Origin: a virus
Direction: 5' to 3' (one strand)
Length of the DNA: 42,390 bases
Virus record (IMG/VR): IMGVR_UViG_3300046007_006437
Location: 1-42,390 of that record
This document shows, in pieces, positions 11,111-39,801 of this stretch. Made by a program: the position numbers and the translations under genes. How positions within the stretch are numbered: position 1 is the first letter of the stretch; every line of letters starts with the position of its first letter. The notes under the pieces are model-generated. The model made no database searches. It had not been told where the DNA came from and worked only from the letters and a program-made list of their open reading frames with translations.

Positions 11111-12940
11111 TTATTCTAGTACGTCAAGATCGACATATATTTTACTTATAGCTACGTCAGGTACATCAATCTCGATGTTCATATCAAACGCATCTCCGCT
11201 TAGTGTTCTCTTAATAAAATCTCTTTGTATAGTCATCTCACTATTCTTTAAGAGTACTATGTTATAATTACCCGCAACGAGTTTGTTATACTTCTGCAAA
11301 CCAGTTTGAGTAATATCCCCATAAGGTTTAAATGTATACGTAGATGTAAGAGCACCACCTCCCATATCGGTACATACAATGTCAATAACAGTTTCAGTGA
11401 TAGATGACGCATTTAACTGCTGTCTGTCATCATTTGAACCCCATATGTAGAACTTCCCATCTTCACCTATGGCACTAATATGATTCTTACCACATGCTAT
11501 ACGCTTAAATTTACCCGTAGGTATATTCGATCTTTGACCGTAGGTATCATCACCTATTATAATGATAGACCCGTCTATCTTCAGTACAGCTATAAATCTC
11601 TCACCTATAGCCACATCTAGAACATCAGTCATAACGTTGTCTACAGCTAGATGTATTGGGTCACCCCACACAAATAGGCGATCATCTGTAGTTATTGCTG
11701 CACTTAGATTATACTTGGCATATACTTTCTTAAACTCACCTGAAGGAGTATCTAGGACCTGCCTAAATTCATCTGTACCCCATGAGACTAGATTCCCGTT
11801 TGAATCGATAGCTACACTGTGATATAGACCACATGCCACTTGTTCAAAACGACCTGTTGGCTTCCTAGATATTTCACCTCTCATATCAGTACCAAAACTA
11901 TTTAGCTTACCTTGAAGATCGATATAGAACCCATGATGATCCCCTATACCCATAGAGGTAACATTAAGATTTACAGGTAAAGTACTGCTTATTGTATTAC
12001 TAGCACTTTTAATCTCTGTATTATATGTGTAATAAGGATGAATTATCTCTTCCTCATTCACTACTAGGTTAGTAATGTATCTGTACTTATCAGTCAATGA
12101 AGTCTTAACATTGATATGACCAGAGTACAGAACATCATCACCCGCTTTAGTTACAAACGTTAAAGGTAAGTACACTTTGTAATTCTTTGTGGTATTAGGT
12201 GATGCAGGTAATGGTTCAATTGTACATTCAATAGGTCTGATACTATTTTCTAGCGCGTTATACATATAGAACGTTCTTTTACTTACAGTCATATTATAAC
12301 TGTAAGGGACGTTTACATTGAAGTACCCATAAAAGTTCTTAGAGTGAAGAGAACCATTCTGTACGGTAGTCCCGTTAATTGATGTTATATTAGTCACTGA
12401 GGGTACGTAGTTGATAGACACTTTAACACCACTATAAAAAGCACTAGCGTTAGTTATTCTAGTAGTCTTTAGAATGTAGTCTACCACCTTATTAATCACT
12501 TTCCCATTGTAAATAACAACGTCTGTGTTCTGAAAGTAAGAACTAAGCATAGTAGACCCTTCATATCTCAAAGCCTCACCTTCTTGAACCTCATAAACAG
12601 ATGCCGGGAATATACTATCGTAGGTCTTCCATATAGCAGGTGAACTCAACCCTTGACCAACTAATACACTATCTTCTGCAGGAAAGTCAATGAACTTACT
12701 GAGTGCTATAGAATCAGTCTTAGGTGCTTTCAAAAGAATATCATTGGCAGTCTTCTTAAGACCATCTACAATGTATTCTCTCGATCTTAAAGATATCTTA
12801 TTAGAGATCACCACTCCAATCTCATCCTTAGGAGTAGCAGTAGTTACTAAATTATATGAGCTATCGTATGTGTAGAATTTATCATCACCATACTCAAGCT
12901 TAGTTCCGTCTTTCTTGTATAAATTAAATACTTTTCTCAT
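11111..12940 (-). CDS. RCC1-repeat beta-propeller tail or fibre protein (first copy)
   Basis: 609 aa starting MRKVFNLYKK. Residues about 320-560 carry consecutive RCC1-type blades: 'GIGDHHGFYIDLQGKLNSFG', 'ACGLYHSVAIDSNGNLVSWG', 'AITTDDRLFVWG', 'AIGERFIAVLKIDGSIIIIG' and 'ACGKNHISAIGEDGKFYIWG'. The repeat formula is (A/C)-x-G-x-x-(H/F)-x-x-A-(I/L)-x-x-(D/N)-G-x-(L/F)-x-x-W-G. In eukaryotes RCC1 propellers bind proteins; in phages similar repeats occur in adhesins. N-terminal to it is 'DSVLVGQGLSSPAIW', a collar motif shared with two neighbours, and a long beta-rich stretch. The gene is 3 nt from the 307-aa gene, inside the late run. A receptor-binding or display role is inferred. The second copy is at 14170-16017. 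Confidence 0.8.
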   Translation of the reverse strand: MRKVFNLYKKDGTKLEYGDDKFYTYDSSYNLVTTATPKDEIGVVISNKISLRSREYIVDGLKKTANDILLKAPKTDSIALSKFIDFPAEDSVLVGQGLSSPAIWKTYDSIFPASVYEVQEGEALRYEGSTMLSSYFQNTDVVIYNGKVINKVVDYILKTTRITNASAFYSGVKVSINYVPSVTNITSINGTTVQNGSLHSKNFYGYFNVNVPYSYNMTVSKRTFYMYNALENSIRPIECTIEPLPASPNTTKNYKVYLPLTFVTKAGDDVLYSGHINVKTSLTDKYRYITNLVVNEEEIIHPYYTYNTEIKSASNTISSTLPVNLNVTSMGIGDHHGFYIDLQGKLNSFGTDMRGEISRKPTGRFEQVACGLYHSVAIDSNGNLVSWGTDEFRQVLDTPSGEFKKVYAKYNLSAAITTDDRLFVWGDPIHLAVDNVMTDVLDVAIGERFIAVLKIDGSIIIIGDDTYGQRSNIPTGKFKRIACGKNHISAIGEDGKFYIWGSNDDRQQLNASSITETVIDIVCTDMGGGALTSTYTFKPYGDITQTGLQKYNKLVAGNYNIVLLKNSEMTIQRDFIKRTLSGDAFDMNIEIDVPDVAISKIYVDLDVLE

Positions 12941-14169: not shown

Positions 14170-16017
14170 TTATTCACCTATTCTTAATGAGTCCATATCA
14201 AACTGAATGTTTGTAGCGATCTCGTAAGGAGTTTTAACCCCATATAAGAAGGTTATTCTTGATGTATTTATTGAGGTTCGTTTAAATTTTATCTCGATTG
14301 TAGCATCAGATATAAGTGTTACAGTATCATACACCAAGGGAGTAAACTGGGTTTCATCTCTTATATCAGTTGTATAAGTGTGATATGCAGTTCTAGACGT
14401 GACTGGATAGAACACGTCGGCACTCAATGATTCACTTAACTTATATACGATTGTATAACCCTCTGTATATGTACCACCTTGCTTAGCCTTTGTAGTTGGT
14501 GCATTATTTTTCACTTGATCGTAAGGTGAACCCGTAGCTACTTTAGTAAAGGCTACAATGCTATAGTCAGATTTTACATACGCACCTATATAATCGTAAC
14601 TGTCGGTGTCAACAACTCCCGTTCTATATGTTCCTGTAATGTTAGTCAATGTACTGGTACCCCATGTGAAAAGATTACCTAATGATGAGATAGCCTGAAA
14701 AATGTATCTCCCCGCTATGACTTTAGTAATAGTCTCTCCTCTGAAGCTAGGAAGAGCATATGAAGTAACTCCCCACTGAACTACTGTACCGTCGGCTTTT
14801 AACGCTAAAGCAGTCTGATAGTTAACATCCACATCGATAAAATCTGAAGTAGTAGGTTTATTAGCTATTAAGTTACTGTAGTCTTTAACAGCAAAAGCTT
14901 CTATTCTACCATCACGTCTTAAAGCCATACCTATCTGATAACCTGCAGCAACTTTAATGAAGTCATCTGCACTTCTATCTGTCATACCGGCAGTCTTTGT
15001 AGTGTATCTAGAAGGAAGCAATGCAGGGTCGACTCTAGCTGTACTACCCCAATGAATAAGGTTATAATCGGCATCAATAGCTAATCCGTAGTCATATCCT
15101 ACAGCTATATGTCTAAATCCCGATGCAGTAGGACAGAACTCAATTATTTTACTAGATGTATACCCACCGTAGCCCCAAGCATAAATCTTTCCATCTTCAG
15201 TAAGACCCGCAAATGCATAATAGTCACTGGCAACTTGCTTGAAGTTTTTAACTGCTACAGGTGGGCGTATATCCGTAGTTTCAATTTGACCCCAATTATA
15301 TACACTTCCATCTTCTAATATGACGGATATAGATGTTCTTGTCGCCGCAACACCTTTTATAACACTACCAGTTTTAACTAGAGGTTCCTTGCTCACTTCA
15401 GATAAAACATTAACCAACTTACCGTTCGAACCTAATATTTTTTGACCTACTATGTTTAAGTCATCTTTTTTGTTATATACTGTTAGATTAGAGGTGTTAT
15501 CGGCATTTAAGACCTCGTTAAGCTTAGTGAACGCAGTACCCGTGAATGTAACTGTAGGAGTGACATATTGCCAAGCATTTTCACCTGTTTGTTGTTGTAG
15601 AAGTTTTGTCGTTACTCTACCACCTGTAACACCTGGAATGATTGAGTTAAGAGTGATAGATACACCATCAATCCAGTTGAAGTTACCCGTTATTAGTGTA
15701 GGACCTTGATACTTGAAAGACTCATCGAATCCAACTGCCGCTCGGTCAACACCTGTTACCTTTCGTGATATTTTCTGCCATCTCAATCCTGATGAACCAC
15801 CCATTAGAACTGATATTCTATCACCTGAACGATCTAGTCTGTTAAGGGGTATAGTACTGAAATTCTCTTCCCTTGTATAAAGGAAGTTGTCAAGGTTAGC
15901 CATATAAGCATATAAATCTTCATTACGGATGTCATCAGTTTTGAATGGTTCATCTTCCGATATTACAGAATACGTGGGATTAGTAACTAATACCATCTCA
16001 TAGCTAAAGTTTTCCAT
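14170..16017 (-). CDS. RCC1-repeat beta-propeller tail or fibre protein (second copy)
   Basis: 615 aa when started at the ATG at 16017 (MENFSYEMVL). A TTG one codon earlier is less likely, because the upstream stop and this ATG form the coupled TGATG arrangement. Residues about 220-480 carry RCC1-type blades: 'SISVILEDGSVYNWG', 'YYAFAGLTEDGKIYAWGYGG', 'AVGYDYGLAIDADYNLIHWG', 'AAGYQIGMALRRDGRIEAFA', 'VNYQTALALKADGTVVQWG' and 'IAGRYIFQAISSLGNLFTWG', enough for a six- or seven-bladed propeller. Near residue 75 the collar element appears as 'SVLMGGSSGLRWQ'. The overall plan matches the gene at 11111-12940, but the sequences are well diverged, so any duplication is old or the two bind different targets. 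An internal TATAAATA at 16201-16208 could give this gene extra late transcription. Confidence 0.8.
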   Translation of the reverse strand: MENFSYEMVLVTNPTYSVISEDEPFKTDDIRNEDLYAYMANLDNFLYTREENFSTIPLNRLDRSGDRISVLMGGSSGLRWQKISRKVTGVDRAAVGFDESFKYQGPTLITGNFNWIDGVSITLNSIIPGVTGGRVTTKLLQQQTGENAWQYVTPTVTFTGTAFTKLNEVLNADNTSNLTVYNKKDDLNIVGQKILGSNGKLVNVLSEVSKEPLVKTGSVIKGVAATRTSISVILEDGSVYNWGQIETTDIRPPVAVKNFKQVASDYYAFAGLTEDGKIYAWGYGGYTSSKIIEFCPTASGFRHIAVGYDYGLAIDADYNLIHWGSTARVDPALLPSRYTTKTAGMTDRSADDFIKVAAGYQIGMALRRDGRIEAFAVKDYSNLIANKPTTSDFIDVDVNYQTALALKADGTVVQWGVTSYALPSFRGETITKVIAGRYIFQAISSLGNLFTWGTSTLTNITGTYRTGVVDTDSYDYIGAYVKSDYSIVAFTKVATGSPYDQVKNNAPTTKAKQGGTYTEGYTIVYKLSESLSADVFYPVTSRTAYHTYTTDIRDETQFTPLVYDTVTLISDATIEIKFKRTSINTSRITFLYGVKTPYEIATNIQFDMDSLRIGE

Positions 16018-16847
16018 CAAGGTTCCTTAATCTTAATTATGATAAAATGATCTAAAACATCTTTGAACATAGGGAACTTTTTGTATAGCTCCTCATAAAC
16101 TTCTATGGATAGATTGTTAGGAAGATTCCTTAAAATCATCTTAAGGTCATCTATCGTTTTTATGTGCTCTAATATGTACTTGAAAGACCTATCTTTGTGG
16201 TATTTATAGATGACTTTAAGAGGTATGTTAGATGCCAATAAATTTGTTACCGTACTGTCATTAAAATATGTTATATTCATCATTAGATATGAGTCTACAA
16301 CGTCATGTTTAAGCATGTTATAATTTTTGTAGACGAATACGGCATCATTTAAACCTACTAGGTACTCTAATGCTTTGGGTTGAGTTAACCTCCATCGAGT
16401 GTACAATAGCTTTATATCGTCATTTACATACTTAGGAGGTACATCTATTTTGTTAGTAGTGAGTGTATTAATGTTATCTTTAGACAGCATAGTAAGACAC
16501 TTAAGCCTACATTTATCCGGCAGCATAAAGTACATGTTTAAGTAATTATTAAGATTACTTTTACTTATATCATTAAGTATCACATTATCATCGTACATAT
16601 CTAAATGACATATTATAGGATAATCTTCATAAGGTTGTGTCAGCTTACCAAACCTAGCTATAAGTTCGGATAAAAGAGGATGATTATGTACGATACAATA
16701 TTTTATTACATTATTGATATTAAATACCTTAAAAATATTTTCTAGATCGGTTTTGTAACCAAGTTTATAGGCTTCCATATCAGTGAAGAAGGTATTAAAG
16801 TTCTCTTCTAAGTGTTTAAGTGTTAATTGGATTTCTATTGTAGTCAT
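16017..16847 (-). CDS. unknown helical protein, first gene of a late run
   Basis: 276 aa starting MTTIEIQLTL. The sequence is almost wholly helical, rich in Leu, Asn, Tyr and Lys, with short repeated helical hairpins ('VIKYCIVHNHPLLSELIARF', 'TNLLASNIPLKVIYKYHKD'). This gives an ankyrin- or HEAT-like look without a clean consensus. No membrane segment or catalytic motif. A CATAAATA late-type box at 16872-16879 is 25 nt upstream, and the downstream propeller gene overlaps its stop codon (TGATG). It opens the run of genes that continues to 9018. The function is not recognised; a baseplate or fibre-assembly role rests on context. Confidence 0.6.
   Translation of the reverse strand: MTTIEIQLTLKHLEENFNTFFTDMEAYKLGYKTDLENIFKVFNINNVIKYCIVHNHPLLSELIARFGKLTQPYEDYPIICHLDMYDDNVILNDISKSNLNNYLNMYFMLPDKCRLKCLTMLSKDNINTLTTNKIDVPPKYVNDDIKLLYTRWRLTQPKALEYLVGLNDAVFVYKNYNMLKHDVVDSYLMMNITYFNDSTVTNLLASNIPLKVIYKYHKDRSFKYILEHIKTIDDLKMILRNLPNNLSIEVYEELYKKFPMFKDVLDHFIIIKIKEP
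16201..16208 (-). promoter_or_regulatory. internal match to the late promoter consensus
   Basis: Exact TATAAATA on the minus strand inside the 276-aa gene, about 180 nt upstream of the RCC1-type gene starting at 16017. It may be functional or chance in AT-rich coding DNA. Confidence 0.35.
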
Positions 16848-20323: not shown

Positions 20324-20331
20324 TATTTATA
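20324..20331 (-). promoter_or_regulatory. T4-type late promoter for the 684-aa fibre gene
   Basis: Exact TATAAATA on the minus strand, overlapping the last codons of the 68-aa gene. The expected start is near 20318, 26 nt before the ATG at 20292. Confidence 0.8.
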
Positions 20332-20533
20332 CTGCCTTTTTCCATTTAGCAGCGGTTCTGTCTTTTTCAGCAATACATGTATTACAAATATGTTTTCCTG
20401 AATAGATGTCCTCTAGTTTTTTCATACCAACTTCGGCACATACCCATTCTCTACCACATTCGTCACATTGTAGTTTACTCATTCTAACAGATTTCCCAGC
20501 TTTAATTACGCTGAATCCATCAATTTTTGCCAT
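20327..20533 (-). CDS. small zinc-binding protein
   Basis: 68 aa starting MAKIDGFSVI. Two CxxC pairs, 'CDECG' (residues 24-27) and 'CNTC' (about 51-54), are spaced as in a zinc ribbon, with a basic start and end ('KSVRMSK', 'TAAKWKKAV'). Such small phage zinc proteins can bind nucleic acid or partner proteins, but no specific family is recognised. The leader of about 95 nt holds a 5-bp GGGAC/GTCCC hairpin, and a CATAAATA box lies at 20628-20635. It sits between two fibre-related units. Confidence 0.7.
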   Translation of the reverse strand: MAKIDGFSVIKAGKSVRMSKLQCDECGREWVCAEVGMKKLEDIYSGKHICNTCIAEKDRTAAKWKKAV

Positions 20534-20627
20534 TGTTATTACCTCTCTATAATGTAGGGTTGCAGGGACTTGTCACGTCCCACTCTGTTTAACGACATTT
20601 TGTAACAATAATCAAATTGTACAGTGG

Positions 20628-20635
20628 TATTTATG
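20628..20635 (-). promoter_or_regulatory. possible late-type promoter (CATAAATA)
   Basis: One change from TATAAATA, at the end of the 75-aa gene and about 95 nt upstream of the 68-aa zinc-protein gene. Confidence 0.4.
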
Positions 20636-20858
20636 TTAGTAGATTGTGATTGTAACCTTGTAGGAGGGCTTCGTTCATAAGTACTTTGCGGATGATACGG
20701 AGGTTGTTAAATTGTAATTCGATTTGATCGGCAAGAGCATCGTAATCTTTGAAATTTTCGTCTATGTTCTTTACAGTGTCTTCTATCTCTGCCACATGTC
20801 CATATACTTTGGTAAACCACATATCTAGGAGTTTTCTCTTAGTGTCATCAGATTGCAT
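20631..20858 (-). CDS. small unknown helical protein
   Basis: 75 aa starting MQSDDTKRKL. Nearly all helix, with heptad-like hydrophobic spacing ('VAEIEDTVKNIDENF', 'LADQIELQFNNLRIIRKVLM'), so probably a coiled coil. Its start lies inside the end of the 73-aa gene (11-nt overlap), so the two are translated together and may pair. No family recognised. Position between two fibre genes suggests an accessory or chaperone role, but this is only context. Confidence 0.6.
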   Translation of the reverse strand: MQSDDTKRKLLDMWFTKVYGHVAEIEDTVKNIDENFKDYDALADQIELQFNNLRIIRKVLMNEALLQGYNHNLLT

Positions 20859-21069
20859 ACTTATCTCCCATCGTTCTAATTGTAGTCTTAACGATCTCTA
20901 CCTGTCCTTGTACGGTTAATATAGCAGTATCCAATGTATCAAGATGCTCTTTAGGTTGAGTTAGGTCAATTGTGTTAAGTGTATTGTGAAAACTGTCAAG
21001 GAACTTACGTAAGTTCTCTACTTTTGTTGTTAAGTCTTGTTTATCTGTGTTGAATTCTGTGTTAGACAC
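20848..21069 (-). CDS. small unknown helical protein, GTG start
   Basis: 73 aa from a GTG at 21069 (MSNTEFNTDK), chosen because AAAGGA lies 5 nt upstream; the nearby ATG is in another frame. The whole protein is helical ('LTTKVENLRKFLDSFHNTL', 'ILTVQGQVEIVKTTIRTM') and is a probable coiled-coil partner of the overlapping 75-aa product. No promoter of either class was found directly upstream, so it may rely on read-through past the hairpin at 21108-21127. Confidence 0.6.
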   Translation of the reverse strand: MSNTEFNTDKQDLTTKVENLRKFLDSFHNTLNTIDLTQPKEHLDTLDTAILTVQGQVEIVKTTIRTMGDKYAI

Positions 21070-23522: not shown

Positions 23523-24455
23523 TTATGACAATCTCATTAAGCAAATTCTTATGTATTGAGGTTCAGTGAGTGTAACTCTAACATTATTTGAGTCTATGAA
23601 TACAACTTTTCCTAGGTCATTAACCCAAACGTCATTGTCTTTCATGTAAATAGACCATACAAGATTGAAGCTACCCAATTTATGCTCAATATCAAAAACA
23701 TCTCCGTATCCCTCGTATATATGACTAACAAAATATTCAACTGCTGTCATAGTGAGCATAACATGACCAGGTTCTATTAAAGAAACCTTAACCGTATTCT
23801 CATCAAGAACTGTAAGATTGGCTAAGTCACGTTCCCACATCCCATCAGCATTCATCATGAGCGGGTCACCCATGAGTGTATAACTGTTAAGGTTATGTTG
23901 AATAATGTGTTCTAACAGAGGTTCAGTGGATTCGTATGTAAACGATGCAAATGATGAGGTTAGTATATGATCGGATACCGGTTCGTTATTAGCACAACAC
24001 ACTTCAACTTCAACCAATCTTTGATCGATGGTATTAATTACAGTTTCAAAGCTTGTTAACTTAACATTAATACTAGCTAAAGCATTATCTACTGTTTGTT
24101 GAATAGAGGTCTGAACCTCAGTTTTGAACGTATCTATGTTCTCTTTAAACGTCGTTTCTAAATTCTGAAAGTTTATATTTTGCTGTTCTTGTACATCGGT
24201 AATGTACATATCAAAATCAGATAATAGGAATTGAATGTCTTCTATTGTACCTTGAAGAGATAACAGTAGCTCTTTGTCTTCAATCGGATATAAACCGTAC
24301 TCTCTGTCAGTGTCCAATAATGGAACTAAGATTTCATCAAGTACTTCAAATGCACCTTGAACAGTATCCGTAGGATTTGTATTAAATATACCTACAAAGG
24401 ATTCTTTAAGTTTAACAAATTGTGCTTGTAAGGTTTGTGTGTAGAGATTAGCCAT
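23523..24455 (-). CDS. fibre-associated protein with two C-terminal tip-like domains
   Basis: 310 aa starting MANLYTQTLQ. Residues about 1-155 are helical with a coiled-coil run ('NIDTFKTEVQTSIQQTVDNA'). Residues about 165-310 contain two successive beta modules, 'IIQHNLNSYTLMGDPLM' to 'HVMLTMTAV' and 'IEHKLGSFNLVWSIYMKD' to 'YIRICLMRL'. These match the C-terminal module of the 684- and 771-aa fibre proteins: H-(N/K)-L, then a Trp-containing strand, then D-x-N-x-V-x-V-x-L-x-E. It overlaps the upstream RRXRR-domain gene by 8 nt. Probably a fibre tip, hinge or connector with a duplicated domain; the exact position in the virion is unknown. Confidence 0.7.
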   Translation of the reverse strand: MANLYTQTLQAQFVKLKESFVGIFNTNPTDTVQGAFEVLDEILVPLLDTDREYGLYPIEDKELLLSLQGTIEDIQFLLSDFDMYITDVQEQQNINFQNLETTFKENIDTFKTEVQTSIQQTVDNALASINVKLTSFETVINTIDQRLVEVEVCCANNEPVSDHILTSSFASFTYESTEPLLEHIIQHNLNSYTLMGDPLMMNADGMWERDLANLTVLDENTVKVSLIEPGHVMLTMTAVEYFVSHIYEGYGDVFDIEHKLGSFNLVWSIYMKDNDVWVNDLGKVVFIDSNNVRVTLTEPQYIRICLMRLS

Positions 24456-24639
24456 TCGTAGAATCCTTAGTAGCAGGATCTACTATCTTTTCATATGGCT
24501 CATCGATGTCTACTTTAAGTTTTATAGAGAAAGGTTTATAGTTAACTATTTTTGCGTAGTTCTCTCTAAGAAGTTTTCGTGCCATCGCATTACTACATGG
24601 CTGATATTGCCGGTTGTTTTTATCGTAAACGTATACCAT
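24448..24639 (-). CDS. stand-alone RRXRR/PLMP domain protein
   Basis: 63 aa from the ATG at 24639 (MVYVYDKNNR), preceded by GGAG at 8 nt. A TTG four codons earlier would put the start on that binding site, so it is less likely. Almost the whole protein matches the RRXRR (PLMP) domain known from the N-terminus of IscB and some HNH nucleases: 'VYVYDKNNRQYQPCSNAMAR', then 'KLLRENYAKIV', then 'YKPFSIKL'. The family form is V-x-V-x-D-x-x-x-x-P-L-M-P-C, then A-R-x-L-L-x-x-G-x-A-x-V, then P-F-x-I-x-L. PLMP reads YQPC here. No RuvC or HNH domain follows; the frame ends after a short acidic tail, overlapping the fibre gene by 8 nt. In IscB this domain contacts the guide RNA. A role for the isolated domain is unknown. 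Confidence 0.75.
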   Translation of the reverse strand: MVYVYDKNNRQYQPCSNAMARKLLRENYAKIVNYKPFSIKLKVDIDEPYEKIVDPATKDSTNG

Positions 24640-24675
24640 TGTTATCTCCAATCATCACACTTTTAAAAAAGTGGT

Positions 24676-24700
24676 AAAAAGAATCGCTCTCCGAAGAGAG
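24676..24700 (-). terminator. intrinsic terminator with UUCG loop
   Basis: On the minus strand, CTCTC-TTCG-GAGAG is followed within 5 nt by CTTTTT. It begins 26 nt after the stop at 24726. A second AT-rich inverted repeat (CACTTTT and AAAAGTG) lies at 24658-24673. Confidence 0.7.
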
Positions 24701-24725: not shown

Positions 24726-25475
24726 TTACTTAAGATATGTTATAAGCGCTCTTTTACCCGCGTGTGTTACATCATTCAGGAATACCACATCAGATGTATC
24801 TGCTGTAAAATCCCATCCCTTGAGGATATCACCCCAATCTTCGATATAAACACGAATAATACCTTTAGCAGGTTCATCCAATGTCATAACTGAGTCAGTA
24901 CCGTCGTCTAATACATCAATCCAGTCTGAAACTACTACTGAAGATACACCTGTAACACTAGCAATAGCGTTAATCTCATCCATCAATTGAGTATTCAACG
25001 CATCTAAGCTAGTATCAACGTATGTTTTAACAGCTTTTTGTGAAGGAATCAAAGTATCAGAGTTAGCTGTTAACAAACCGTCAGTTGAAATAACAGTCTG
25101 TCTAAGAACTGCGGCATCAGACGAATTCTCGATCTTAACCCAGTGAGCAGATGATGTGGTACTTAAAACGTCTTCAATTGCGAAGATAACGTCACCTACG
25201 TCAAGAGTCATAGTGTCGATAATACCACCGACAGTAACTTTATATAACCAACCCGAGTCAGCATCTGCCGGGAAAGAACCTTGTGAAGCGTCAAATGTAC
25301 CTTTATTTTGAATTGGACTTTGTACGCTGTTTACTTTAGAAAGGACCCAGTCCAAATCTGTTGGAGCACTAACAGTAAGAAGATCGACTTTGCTTTTTTG
25401 ATCTGGTGTAACGAACACCCTATCAACGGTCTCAACGACATTACTGGCAGATATAGTTTGTGTTTCAATAGCCAT
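24726..25475 (-). CDS. fibre-type tail protein
   Basis: 249 aa starting MAIETQTISA. Residues about 70-120 carry 'NKGTFDASQGSFPADADSG', 'WLYKVTVGGIIDTMTLDVGD' and 'VIFAIEDV', a module common in phage fibre and tail-lysin proteins. It is followed by 'LIPSQKAVKTYVDTSLDALN', the 'S-Q-K-A-V-K-x-Y-V-D' helix typical of fibre and collar proteins of T4-like and other phages. The C-terminal ~75 residues are beta-rich ('IIRVYIEDWGDILKGW'), ending at 'RALITYLK', and may be a distant form of the tip module of the neighbouring fibres. An AATAAATA late-type box at 25503-25510 precedes it, and a terminator with a UUCG loop follows it. Confidence 0.75.
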   Translation of the reverse strand: MAIETQTISASNVVETVDRVFVTPDQKSKVDLLTVSAPTDLDWVLSKVNSVQSPIQNKGTFDASQGSFPADADSGWLYKVTVGGIIDTMTLDVGDVIFAIEDVLSTTSSAHWVKIENSSDAAVLRQTVISTDGLLTANSDTLIPSQKAVKTYVDTSLDALNTQLMDEINAIASVTGVSSVVVSDWIDVLDDGTDSVMTLDEPAKGIIRVYIEDWGDILKGWDFTADTSDVVFLNDVTHAGKRALITYLK

Positions 25476-36399: not shown

Positions 36400-37014
36400 A
36401 TGGACACAAATTTTAACAACTACAACCTGACGACTAATATAGTTTTTGGAACTACATTGTTTGGTGAAGAGATGACATTTAACGTTCAATCAGTCAATCT
36501 TCCAGGTATAGCTATTGCTTACAGTAAAGCAAACTCCAGGTACGACGTTTTAAACCCAACTATAGCATATGAATCATTAGAGTTCCCAGCTCTACAAGTC
36601 ACGTTCCTTTCGGATGAAGACATGAAAATATGGATGCAATTCATTACGCTTATAGTATCGTCTAGGGACGTTGACTTCTTTAACAATCATCATGATGCTT
36701 GGATTGCTATCAAGACAAATAATGGTAAACCAGTAGCCAAGATAAACTACATCAACATAGTGGTGACCAACATATCAGACTTAACATATGACTTTGGAAG
36801 TGATAATACAGAGCAGACATTTACAGTCGATATACAGTACGATTATTACGAGATAGAAAACGTGATGCTAATACGAGATAGAGCTATAGCGATTGACATC
36901 ATGCAGAGTGAGATAGATAAAGCGGTTGAGAATAGAAGTGTAGACGGTACAATGGAAAGAAGTGTATCAGGAACTTCAGGTATGACTGAAAACGGAGATT
37001 TAGTAGTAGAGTGA
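36400..37014 (+). CDS. tail-tube-like protein, only plus-strand gene
   Basis: 204 aa starting MDTNFNNYNL, with AGGA at 6 nt and a plus-strand late-type promoter. It follows the T4 tail-tube (gp19) fold pattern: an N-terminal strand 'TNIVFGTTLFGEEMTFNVQS' (gp19: NLFQVEISYLGQNFTFQCKA), then 'VNLPGIAI' (TALPAGIV), 'LQVTFLSDEDMKIWMQF' (WTVTVMNDEAHDARQKF), and 'EQTFTVDIQYDYYEIE' (IQTFEVTLALDYWE). A C-terminal extension of ~45 residues is Ser/Glu/Gly-rich and absent from gp19. The T4 tube initiator gp54 and cap proteins use related folds, so it could be the tube, its initiator or a paralogue. It ends at 37014, directly abutting the convergent polymerase stop at 37015. Confidence 0.65.
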   Translation: MDTNFNNYNLTTNIVFGTTLFGEEMTFNVQSVNLPGIAIAYSKANSRYDVLNPTIAYESLEFPALQVTFLSDEDMKIWMQFITLIVSSRDVDFFNNHHDAWIAIKTNNGKPVAKINYINIVVTNISDLTYDFGSDNTEQTFTVDIQYDYYEIENVMLIRDRAIAIDIMQSEIDKAVENRSVDGTMERSVSGTSGMTENGDLVVE

Positions 37015-39777
37015 TTAACACCACTCATCTACTGTGATTTTCTTTTGATGTGACCATCCTAGAGGTCCTATCATAATATCTAATGCTTGAATGAAGAACC
37101 GATCCCACATAGATTCTCTGTCTATGTACTTAGTAAGACCTGCCCTATCAATGATAGTGCTATTCATGTAACCGAATACATCAGAATTGACCGTATTAGG
37201 TGTCTTTAGCAACAAGTACTTCATTTTATCTTTTTCATTGATGTAATTATACTCTTTTTGTAATCCAGCTACTAAAATAGACATGTTATGTACAACTGCC
37301 GCACGTGAGTTGATAGGTATAGGAGAACATTCAGCCTTCCCGTCAGGTGAGTCAAAAAATAACGAGTGATTAAACACTTTAAAACCAATGTTTTTGATGT
37401 CAGCACCCGGATATACTGATTCTAAGCCTTTGAACTTTTTAGCACCTGTAGTAGAGTCTTTACCGTCAGGTATCTTAAAGTTAAATGAGACTTTATTAAC
37501 CCCGGTTACCCTTGATACTTCATCAATAGGTGCAGACATGAATTTCTTCTTGACATCAGACGTCCATGTTTGAAGGCTAGATTCGTCACCATCTAGTAAG
37601 ATGTCAATAGAATCCTTGAGATACTTCCTACAGAACATAGGAGTACTGGACCTAACGATTTCAAGACCCATGACTTTCTTTTTAGGTTCTTTTAAGCGAA
37701 CACCTTCTGTATCGAGAACACGAGCAATATAACGTTTCTTAGCAATGAAAATGCCAGAGTCAGCGATGATTTCTCTATCCATTGCCATAGCGTCAGCTTC
37801 AAGTACATTGAGAGACTTACCTACTTTATCAGTCATTATATTAACATAAGGTTGTACTACTTTCTCACAAACGTTATTACAAAAATCAATAGTTTCAGTG
37901 AATGAAAGCTCAGACTTTGAACGTTTTGCTTGTACAAAATTGTCAACTGTCAAATAAAATGAGTCGGTATCCCCATAAACTAAGTAAGGTTTCTTACTGG
38001 GTAGCTTCTCTCGCAACATACCGTCAACTGAGAACGCCATTGTTTTGTTTGTGTATCGTCCATTACCTGTGATTGCTGCGGCAATCTCATTATTGAACAG
38101 TACGAAATATTGATTACCTAGGGCGCCATAAAGACTGTTTAGAAGAATCTTTTTTGTCATCTGTGCAGTGTCCCAAAATGCTTCGAGATATTCTTCTGCT
38201 TTAATCTCTTCGGGTGTAGCACCACTAGTTTTTAGTGTTTGAATATGTTGTGAGTGTACAAACATCTGCTTCTTATCAGCTTTACGCTCAGCATACAACT
38301 GCTTAATCAGCCTAGGAATCAATCCCACCTCGTCTCTACGATAAAATGACCCATTTATTCCAGCCGACACGTTGTATTTCTCTAATAGAGGTGTCACTTT
38401 CTCTATAAGCTCATCTACTCTGTTAATTAGCAAGTCTTCGTCATCTATAAACACGTTAGTTTTCAGATGCATCAACTCAGGAGGTAAATCTTTTGTGTTG
38501 ATATACGTTTCAGGACTGAAGTTACACCAACGAATGATAGACGGATATAGGGAAGCCCAGTCGAATGACACAATCCAGTTATGTTTACCCACTTCAGGAT
38601 CGGCAACCCAAGCACCTTTAATTTGATCGTGGGAACCTCTACTCCCACCATCATTAGGTAGAATGAATCCTTCAGAATATGCTATGTTTGTGATGTACGT
38701 ACCCCAAGGTTTAACAGTACCTAAAGCATCATCTAAACAAATTCCCATCTTGTAAGCAATTGACTTAACAAGATTGATTAGATTTAGTTTTTTATCGATA
38801 CCTAAAATAAGCTCAACGTCAACGATACCGTAACGAACAAATGTGACATAATCCTCTACCATCAAATGATCTAGGTTATCATATTCTGAGTACTCTACTT
38901 TTTCAGCACCTAATTCTACACTAGCAATGTTATTGAGTGAGAAGCTAGTTTGAGGTGTGAATGTGAACTTCTTATACAACTCCATCAAGTCAAGCAAATA
39001 GATACCTGAAATAGTAGTATTGTACACATCAGAGTTCCCAACCTTTTTATACTCACATTTAACATCCTGAACAGGTGAAAGGTCATTGGAGTTCAACCCT
39101 ATCTTATCTGCTCGATTGATAATGTAAGGAAAGTCGAACAGGTCACCGTTCCAAGCTGTCATGATAGTAGGGTTCTTAACCTTTATCAGCTTGAACATGT
39201 ACTTAAACATTTCAGCTTCATCGTTTACTTGAAGGTACGTCGTCTTCTCCGGGAACGAGTATTTGGCATTGTACTCCTTGACACGTTCCAAATTCTTAGG
39301 ATCTTCATGACCTTCTATAGGTTTGTACCCTATGATGTAGTACTTATCATCAAATGAATCATAAATCTGAATGAGTGTTACAGGTGCTTTAGCCTCATTA
39401 GGAAACGGGAACCCGAACTCCTGAGAAACCTCAATGTCTAGGTACCATATTCTCATGGCATGATCGTTGTTGACGTACTGATTGTTATTGAAATAATAAG
39501 CATCTCTTATGTATTGATACTTAGGAGTAGTCTTACCGAAGTAAGGCATGTTCATCTCATCCATCGATTTACACCAAGCATTCATATCTTGAGCACTTTC
39601 GAACCGCTTCTCTGTAAGTGATATTGACTTATCTAAGAAGTATTTGAGTGAACCGTTACCGGGAATATAGACTGTAGGAGTTAGATTTATCTCTCTAATT
39701 TCTGATTTTTTTGTGTCAGGATTGTAAACCCTCTCGTAGGTTTTACTCTTGACATTGAACACATTTTCATATAGCAT
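37015..39777 (-). CDS. 43: family B DNA polymerase, gp43-like
   Basis: 920 aa from the ATG at 39777 (MLYENVFNVK), with AAGGA at 6 nt; an ATG two codons earlier overlaps that site. T4 gp43 is 898 aa. The proofreading exonuclease has ExoI 'WYLDIEV' (D114, E116), ExoII 'AWNGDLFDFPYI' (about 208-219) and ExoIII 'YGIVD' (316-320). Polymerase motifs are A 'FDWASLYPSIIR' (405-416), B 'KKILLNSLYGALGN' (542-555) and C 'VYGDTDSFY' (600-608), with 'KKRY' at 680-683. All catalytic aspartates are present and there is no intein or split. The C-terminus 'QKKITVDEWC' occupies the place of the clamp-binding tail of T4 gp43 and shares D-E-W with the late transcription factors. A middle-type promoter is at 39802-39824. 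Confidence 0.97.
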   Translation of the reverse strand: MLYENVFNVKSKTYERVYNPDTKKSEIREINLTPTVYIPGNGSLKYFLDKSISLTEKRFESAQDMNAWCKSMDEMNMPYFGKTTPKYQYIRDAYYFNNNQYVNNDHAMRIWYLDIEVSQEFGFPFPNEAKAPVTLIQIYDSFDDKYYIIGYKPIEGHEDPKNLERVKEYNAKYSFPEKTTYLQVNDEAEMFKYMFKLIKVKNPTIMTAWNGDLFDFPYIINRADKIGLNSNDLSPVQDVKCEYKKVGNSDVYNTTISGIYLLDLMELYKKFTFTPQTSFSLNNIASVELGAEKVEYSEYDNLDHLMVEDYVTFVRYGIVDVELILGIDKKLNLINLVKSIAYKMGICLDDALGTVKPWGTYITNIAYSEGFILPNDGGSRGSHDQIKGAWVADPEVGKHNWIVSFDWASLYPSIIRWCNFSPETYINTKDLPPELMHLKTNVFIDDEDLLINRVDELIEKVTPLLEKYNVSAGINGSFYRRDEVGLIPRLIKQLYAERKADKKQMFVHSQHIQTLKTSGATPEEIKAEEYLEAFWDTAQMTKKILLNSLYGALGNQYFVLFNNEIAAAITGNGRYTNKTMAFSVDGMLREKLPSKKPYLVYGDTDSFYLTVDNFVQAKRSKSELSFTETIDFCNNVCEKVVQPYVNIMTDKVGKSLNVLEADAMAMDREIIADSGIFIAKKRYIARVLDTEGVRLKEPKKKVMGLEIVRSSTPMFCRKYLKDSIDILLDGDESSLQTWTSDVKKKFMSAPIDEVSRVTGVNKVSFNFKIPDGKDSTTGAKKFKGLESVYPGADIKNIGFKVFNHSLFFDSPDGKAECSPIPINSRAAVVHNMSILVAGLQKEYNYINEKDKMKYLLLKTPNTVNSDVFGYMNSTIIDRAGLTKYIDRESMWDRFFIQALDIMIGPLGWSHQKKITVDEWC

Positions 39778-39801
39778 ATACATTCCTTATTTGGGTATAA
39801 A

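What the first reader, a model, noticed from the sequence alone, without database searches (positions are those of the whole stretch)
24448..24639. Orphan RRXRR/PLMP domain next to fibre genes
The 63-aa product is little more than the domain that begins IscB and some HNH nucleases, with PLMP changed to YQPC and no RuvC or HNH part following. It overlaps a fibre gene by 8 nt, so this does not look like a decayed IscB; a selected small protein is more likely. Possible roles: RNA binding, an inhibitor of host IscB/OMEGA systems, or a protein-binding module. All of these are speculation.
Basis: partly seen in the sequence, partly recalled or inferred. Interest (0 to 1): 0.75.

Follow-up and report, generated by a model that had tools for sequence, protein, structure and literature searches.

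The report
Free-standing IscB PLMP domain in phage
A large phage carries, between its tail-fibre genes, a tiny intact gene for only the first domain of the RNA-guided nuclease IscB, and a second phage keeps it in the same place, so a piece of an ancestor of Cas9 seems to have become a protein in its own right with a job still unknown.

Summary
The 63-aa product on the minus strand (24448-24639) matches Pfam RRXRR above its cut-off (5.1e-10) and the N-terminus of NCBIfam IscB (7.3e-12). It covers only the roughly 48-residue PLMP domain; the RRXRR/bridge-helix, RuvC and HNH parts are absent. It is not a decayed IscB. A second phage contig (IMGVR_UViG_3300007623_000006) encodes a 60-aa homologue (45% identical) in the same gene order, abutting the same fibre gene. 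Codon positions show protein-level constraint, and no IscB remnant lies in either contig. A fold predicted from these two sequences alone matches solved IscB PLMP domains best (1.8 A). Every other viral hit is a nuclease gene. Short PLMP frames in the sampled bacterial genomes are mostly broken IscBs, with one exception: two related genomes carry a separate free PLMP-like gene ending a tad-pilus operon. All four free domains lost L-M of the PLMP motif (Leu kept in 42 of 43 nuclease-linked domains) while keeping the core, as expected if docking on RuvC is gone. Most likely mechanism (inferred): a small basic domain binding structured RNA or the ribosome during late expression. A fibre-partner role is nearly as likely; an anti-OMEGA role is unlikely. 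No function was tested.

The parts
24448..24639 (-). gene of the 63-aa free-standing PLMP (RRXRR N-terminal) domain protein
   Evidence: Pfam RRXRR 5.1e-10 and NCBIfam IscB 7.3e-12; syntenic free homologue L005:13316-13498; fold
24508..24636 (-). PLMP domain core (residues 2-44): strand 2-5, helix 17-25, strands 29-35 and 38-43; the motif PLMP reads QYQP (residues 11-14)
   Evidence: AlphaFold models; alignments
24451..24507 (-). acidic, low-confidence C-terminal tail (residues 45-63) whose DNA also holds the ribosome-binding site of the next gene
   Evidence: pLDDT falls to 53 and 38 in the last blocks of residues; sequence
24646..24649 (-). Shine-Dalgarno GGAG of the PLMP gene
   Evidence: read directly from sequence
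24464..24468 (-). Shine-Dalgarno AAGGA of the downstream fibre gene, inside the PLMP gene
   Evidence: read directly from sequence
23523..24455 (-). downstream fibre-like gene (310 aa), overlaps the PLMP gene by 8 nt; its homologue in the second phage overlaps by 1 nt
24687..24700 (-). UUCG hairpin with T-run, terminator-like, between the upstream gene and the PLMP gene; one such site is about what chance gives
   Evidence: scan; the region as a whole does not fold better than shuffles
24726..25475 (-). upstream gene (249 aa, weak tail-fibre PHROG match), 52% identical in the second phage

Best explanation
The gene encodes a free-standing, selected PLMP domain that descends from the N-terminus of an IscB-type (RRXRR) protein and is kept in the late fibre operon of a T4-like phage lineage (shown to the extent that sequence can). 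Having no nuclease to dock on, it has lost the L-M of the PLMP strand, which packs against RuvC, and kept the beta-alpha-beta-beta core and its net positive charge. Most likely (inferred) it works as a small RNA-binding protein: it sits on structured RNA or on the ribosome, as PLMP sits on the terminal hairpins of the guide RNA and as the related N-domain of initiation factor IF3 sits on the small ribosomal subunit, and so tunes translation or stability of phage late messages, perhaps that of its own fibre operon. Likelihoods: free selected PLMP protein about 0.93; RNA or ribosome binding as the mechanism about 0.4.
For: Family. Fold from the two free sequences alone: pLDDT 79.6, nine IscB/IsrB chains are the best PDB matches, then IF3 N-domains far weaker. 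Selection and synteny: 45% identical free homologue in the same gene order; nucleotide identity by codon position 0.52/0.72/0.38. Not a remnant: no other IscB part in either contig; both sequences form one clade on a long stem (96/93). Motif loss only in free domains: Leu of PLMP kept in 42 of 43 linked or decayed domains and Pro in 43 of 43, Leu and Met lost in 4 of 4 free ones, other core columns kept. RNA: core net charge +7 and +4, like most IscB PLMP domains; PLMP binds the terminal hairpins of the guide RNA in IscB and IsrB, including the one with the Shine-Dalgarno sequence, and resembles IF3-N (PMC9640706, PMC9581776). Late context: exact TATAAATA sites just before several fibre genes, none before the PLMP gene, which overlaps its neighbour.
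Against: No RNA partner is visible: the upstream regions of the two phages share no evident structure (the window's folds no better than shuffles, z -0.5; the other phage's z -3.1) and Rfam finds nothing. In IscB the PLMP strand itself also touches the guide RNA, so its loss could mean that RNA binding is lost too. Only two phage sequences are known, both uncultured contigs. TATAAATA is not over-represented as a whole (5 found, 7.1 expected), so late expression rests on position only.
Confidence: 0.45

Rival explanations
1. A fibre-linked protein-binding module: the freed PLMP domain binds the fibre protein encoded directly downstream, as an assembly factor, chaperone or small virion component.
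For: Both phages keep it directly upstream of the same fibre gene with overlapping ends. In IscB and IsrB the domain also serves as a protein-protein scaffold with RuvC and TI (PMC9581776). A separate free PLMP gene in bacteria likewise sits in an appendage (tad pilus) operon.
Against: The strand that makes the known protein contact is the part that was lost. Other small genes between the fibre genes (20327-21069) show that small neighbours are common there. No co-variation test is possible with two sequences.
Confidence: 0.3
2. A counter-defence protein: a PLMP mimic that competes for the guide RNA or RuvC of host IscB/IsrB and blocks it.
For: It is a phage-encoded fragment of an RNA-guided nuclease; a dominant-negative fragment is conceivable.
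Against: The motif that contacts both RuvC and the guide RNA is lost in both phages (PMC9640706). It sits with late structural genes, not with early genes. No PADLOC match. No paper in the searched library (one query) describes an IscB inhibitor of this kind. The host is unknown.
Confidence: 0.08
3. A leftover of an inserted and decayed IscB gene that happens to stay open.
For: Short PLMP frames in the sampled bacterial genomes are mostly of this kind: G653, G688 and G040 carry broken IscB pieces or stop-interrupted frames.
Against: Those keep the PLMP motif and, where looked at, the remnants; here both are gone, the gene is conserved at the protein level at 45% identity in the same place of another phage, it has a good ribosome-binding site and it overlaps the next gene.
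Confidence: 0.04
4. The free domain is ancestral rather than derived: an IF3-N-like RNA-binding module that existed before it was joined to RuvC to make IsrB/IscB.
For: PLMP resembles the IF3 N-domain (PMC9581776). Free forms occur in two unrelated settings.
Against: The free forms nest among nuclease-linked domains on long stems and as two separate groups, which fits two derivations better, though 52 columns cannot root the tree.
Confidence: 0.08

Closest known systems
PLMP domain of IscB/IsrB (OMEGA RNA-guided nucleases; Pfam PF14239 RRXRR, NCBIfam NF040563)
   Same: Sequence (Pfam 5.1e-10), gapless alignment over about 48 residues, predicted fold within 1.8 A of solved IscB PLMP domains, basic core, conserved V-x-V, A-R-x-L-L, P-F-x-I-x-L
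   Different: Free-standing: no bridge helix, RuvC, HNH, WED or TI; motif PLMP is QYQP; no guide-RNA family found nearby
Free PLMP-like gene at the end of a tad/Flp pilus operon in two related bacterial genomes (G800, G843)
   Same: 54-59 aa, free, PLMP motif lost, overlaps the gene before it
   Different: Different lineage in the tree (100/100, apart from the phage pair), motif replaced in another way (P-RGR, P-KGK), bacterial chromosome
[quoted passage not shown]
   Same: Reported by others as the remote relative of PLMP (PMC9581776); appears in the fold search behind the IscB chains
   Different: No sequence match to the IF3 family at E up to 1 in Pfam; weak fold score (prob 0.2-0.3)
TldR (TnpB relatives exapted by phages as RNA-guided transcription factors)
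   Same: Part of an OMEGA system re-used by phages (PMC13418256, abstract)
   Different: TldR is described as an RNA-guided transcription factor; here only one 48-residue accessory domain remains

Membership tests
Pfam PF14239 RRXRR | score above the curated cut-off | tested here: met
   39.9 bits against 25; second phage 35.8 bits
Pfam PF14239 RRXRR | Arg-rich RRXRR region and RNase H-like part (rest of the 174 positions) | tested here: not met
   only positions 1-48 of 174 match and the protein ends
PLMP domain | beta-alpha-beta-beta fold of the IscB N-terminus | tested here: met
   model from free sequences only; IscB/IsrB chains rank 1-9 in PDB
PLMP domain | the PLMP motif itself | tested here: not met
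   QYQP and TTEP; only the last Pro is kept
IscB/IsrB OMEGA nuclease | RuvC (and HNH) domains in the same protein or nearby | tested here: not met
   no match in window or second contig beyond the PLMP domain at significant E; the contigs may be fragments of larger genomes
IscB/IsrB OMEGA nuclease | adjacent guide RNA | tested here: not met
   no Rfam family in the window; upstream regions of the two phages not alike by eye
IF3 N-domain | sequence match to IF3_N | tested here: not met
   RRXRR is the only Pfam match at E up to 1
anti-OMEGA inhibitor | blocks IscB activity | not testable with these tools
   needs a biochemical or interference assay
RNA-binding protein | binds RNA | not testable with these tools
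   only charge and relationship are known

The most novel reading that the evidence does not exclude
The PLMP domain of the Cas9-ancestor family is an independent RNA- or ribosome-binding module that has been set free at least twice, in a phage fibre operon and in a bacterial tad-pilus operon, each time losing the RuvC-docking motif and taking up a new regulatory role in the expression of surface appendages.
Probability: 0.3. Interest if true: 0.75.

Novelty: new variant of a known kind. Interest (0 to 1): 0.52.

Why it matters
Deleting PLMP abolishes nicking by IsrB, and the domain is held to be important for assembly of the IscB complex, yet it was lost on the way to Cas9, and no study of it in isolation turned up in the literature searched here. 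A naturally free 60-residue version, kept by selection without any nuclease, makes it possible to ask directly what the domain binds, and shows that OMEGA parts can be re-used by phages one domain at a time.

Tried and rejected
Scans of viral contigs with the single protein and with the fibre gene directly downstream found no further relative; scans with the helicase, the second upstream gene and several alignments found only the same second phage, a short contig that ends before the locus, distant helicases, or full-length IscBs. A six-row alignment was too divergent to scan. tblastn of annotated phages gave only full-length or cut RRXRR-HNH proteins, plus chance hits such as an antisense one in Vibrio phages F95/F99/F100. 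Distant helicase loci L032-L035 hold no PLMP. A conserved RNA upstream of the gene was looked for and not found. Fold search in viral proteins gave no significant match. Short PLMP frames in bacteria were considered as further free members and rejected where the rest of IscB lies broken beside them or the contig ends; some below-cut-off or partial short frames (G126, G322, G532, G755) were not resolved further.

Full report
Check of the observation. The frame 24448-24639 on the minus strand reads MVYVYDKNNRQYQPCSNAMARKLLRENYAKIVNYKPFSIKLKVDIDEPYEKIVDPATKDSTNG. Pfam-A gives one family, RRXRR (PF14239), E 5.1e-10, 39.9 bits against a cut-off of 25, over profile positions 1-48 of 174. NCBIfam gives IscB, 7.3e-12, over positions 1-50 of 314. 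In the PDB the best chain is TbaIscB (2.8e-4), then other IscBs. With about 110 frames of at least 50 aa in the window this is far from chance. The window is a virus record of its own, with T4-like replication genes (polymerase, clamp loader, gp46/47-like, Dda-like and DnaB-like helicases, sigma factor, tail tube) and fibre genes. Its polymerase is only about 32% identical to the nearest annotated phages, so it belongs to a little-known lineage.

A second phage. The helicase gene led to contig IMGVR_UViG_3300007623_000006 (111 kb). The same run of genes is present there: helicase 82%, 26105-gene 64%, 25513-gene 82%, 24726-gene 52%, then a 60-aa PLMP protein (45-46%), then the homologue of the 23523 fibre gene, which begins on the last base of its stop codon. 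That protein also passes the Pfam cut-off (35.8 bits). Identity by codon position between the two genes is 0.52, 0.72 and 0.38: second positions are kept and third positions randomised (synonymous change is saturated, so no ratio is given). No other part of IscB is found in either contig.

Are homologues free or nuclease-linked? The other clear viral hits looked at run on into bridge helix, RuvC and HNH, or are cut only by a contig end or one frame break. In about 390 genomes of the class of C. difficile, nearly all matches above the cut-off lie in long frames, the exceptions being fragments or a frame with a stop. With a PLMP-only profile on 399 genomes of its phylum several short frames appear. 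In G653 (twice) and G688 the rest of IscB lies broken downstream, and in G628 and G613 the match lies near a contig end: these look like decay products or cut genes, and most keep the PLMP motif. One is different: in G800 a 54-aa gene is the last of a tad/Flp pilus operon (RcpC/CpaB, T2SSF and T2SSE genes before it), overlaps the RcpC gene by one base, and has no IscB remains; its Pfam score, 21.8 bits, is under the cut-off of 25. A 77% identical homologue sits in the same place in G843 of the same order. So a free PLMP-like gene exists at least twice.

What changed. On an alignment of 43 linked or decayed domains and four free ones, the linked ones keep Pro at the last motif position 43 of 43 times and Leu at the second 42 of 43 times; 31 read PLMP exactly. 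The free ones read QYQP and TTEP (phage) and P-KGK and P-RGR (tad). Other core columns (V2, V4, R21, L23, L24, A29, P36, F37, L41) are kept in all four. The four are two lineages, not four events. In a tree of 52 columns the phage pair is one clade (96/93) on a long stem, the tad pair another (100/100), and they do not join; with so few columns deeper placement is unsafe.

Fold. AlphaFold on the seven-row alignment gives strand-helix-strand-strand with pLDDT 76.5. To avoid bias by IscB rows it was repeated with the two free sequences only: pLDDT 79.6, same elements. Against the PDB, IscB and IsrB chains take ranks 1-9 (best rmsd about 1.6-1.9 A over 48 columns), and IF3 N-domains appear at ranks 15 and 22 with low probability. 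Foldseek E-values are modest (7e-3), as can be expected for so short a domain. The tail from about residue 50 is of low confidence.

How it probably works. Published structures show that the PLMP motif packs on RuvC and touches the guide RNA, that the domain as a whole recognises the terminal hairpins of that RNA mostly without sequence preference, that in IsrB one of these holds the Shine-Dalgarno sequence of the IsrB gene, that deletion of PLMP abolishes nicking, and that the domain resembles the IF3 N-domain (PMC9640706, PMC9581776). Loss of the RuvC-facing strand with retention of the core and of net positive charge (+7 and +4) fits a domain that no longer docks on a nuclease but may still bind RNA or the ribosome. 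Position among late fibre genes fits late expression: exact TATAAATA boxes lie 36-70 bases before three fibre or tail genes, while the PLMP gene has none and probably shares a transcript with its neighbours; overall the box is not enriched. This mechanism is inference. A role as partner of the adjacent fibre protein is nearly as likely. An anti-OMEGA decoy is unlikely, since a decoy should keep the contact motif.

What is known. The literature held here describes PLMP only as part of IscB/IsrB; a search for a standalone PLMP domain returned only the IsrB structure paper. Subscription papers and most preprints were not searched. [quoted passage not shown] I file this as a free-standing PLMP domain, a new variant of a known domain family, and not as an IscB.

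Limits. Only two phage sequences, both uncultured, both contigs possibly incomplete, host unknown; the metagenome collection could not be scanned; the bacterial survey covers parts of two phyla only.

Noticed in passing
L062:4378-4542 (minus) and L072:1501-1680 (plus), genomes G800 and G843: A 54-59 aa free PLMP-like gene ends a tad/Flp pilus operon in two related bacterial genomes, start overlapping the stop of RcpC/CpaB, PLMP motif replaced by P-RGR or P-KGK.
   Followed up: partly
L058:9677-9856 and 11787-11951 (G653); L059-L061 (G688): Broken IscB copies that leave short open PLMP frames; they show what decay looks like and that it mostly keeps the PLMP motif.
   Followed up: yes
window 5430, 9006, 16201, 20324, 23511 (all minus): All five exact TATAAATA boxes are on the minus strand and three lie 36-70 bases before large fibre or tail genes, like T4 late promoters; the total number is not above chance.
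   Followed up: partly
window 11111-12940 and 14170-16020 (minus): Two tail-region proteins of about 610 aa contain RCC1 repeats (Pfam 6.9e-27 and 7.3e-14), which seem unusual in a phage fibre cluster.
   Followed up: no
window 20327-20533 (minus): A 68-aa CxxC...CxxC protein between fibre genes, about 70% identical in the second phage (L005:17009-17209), without a clear family.
   Followed up: no
window 36400-37014 (plus): The tail-tube-like gene is the only gene with a family match seen on the plus strand, standing alone between replication genes.
   Followed up: no
window 37015-39783 (minus): The DNA polymerase is only about 32% identical to the nearest annotated phages (Campylobacter and Vibrio phages), so the lineage has no close named relative.
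   Followed up: no
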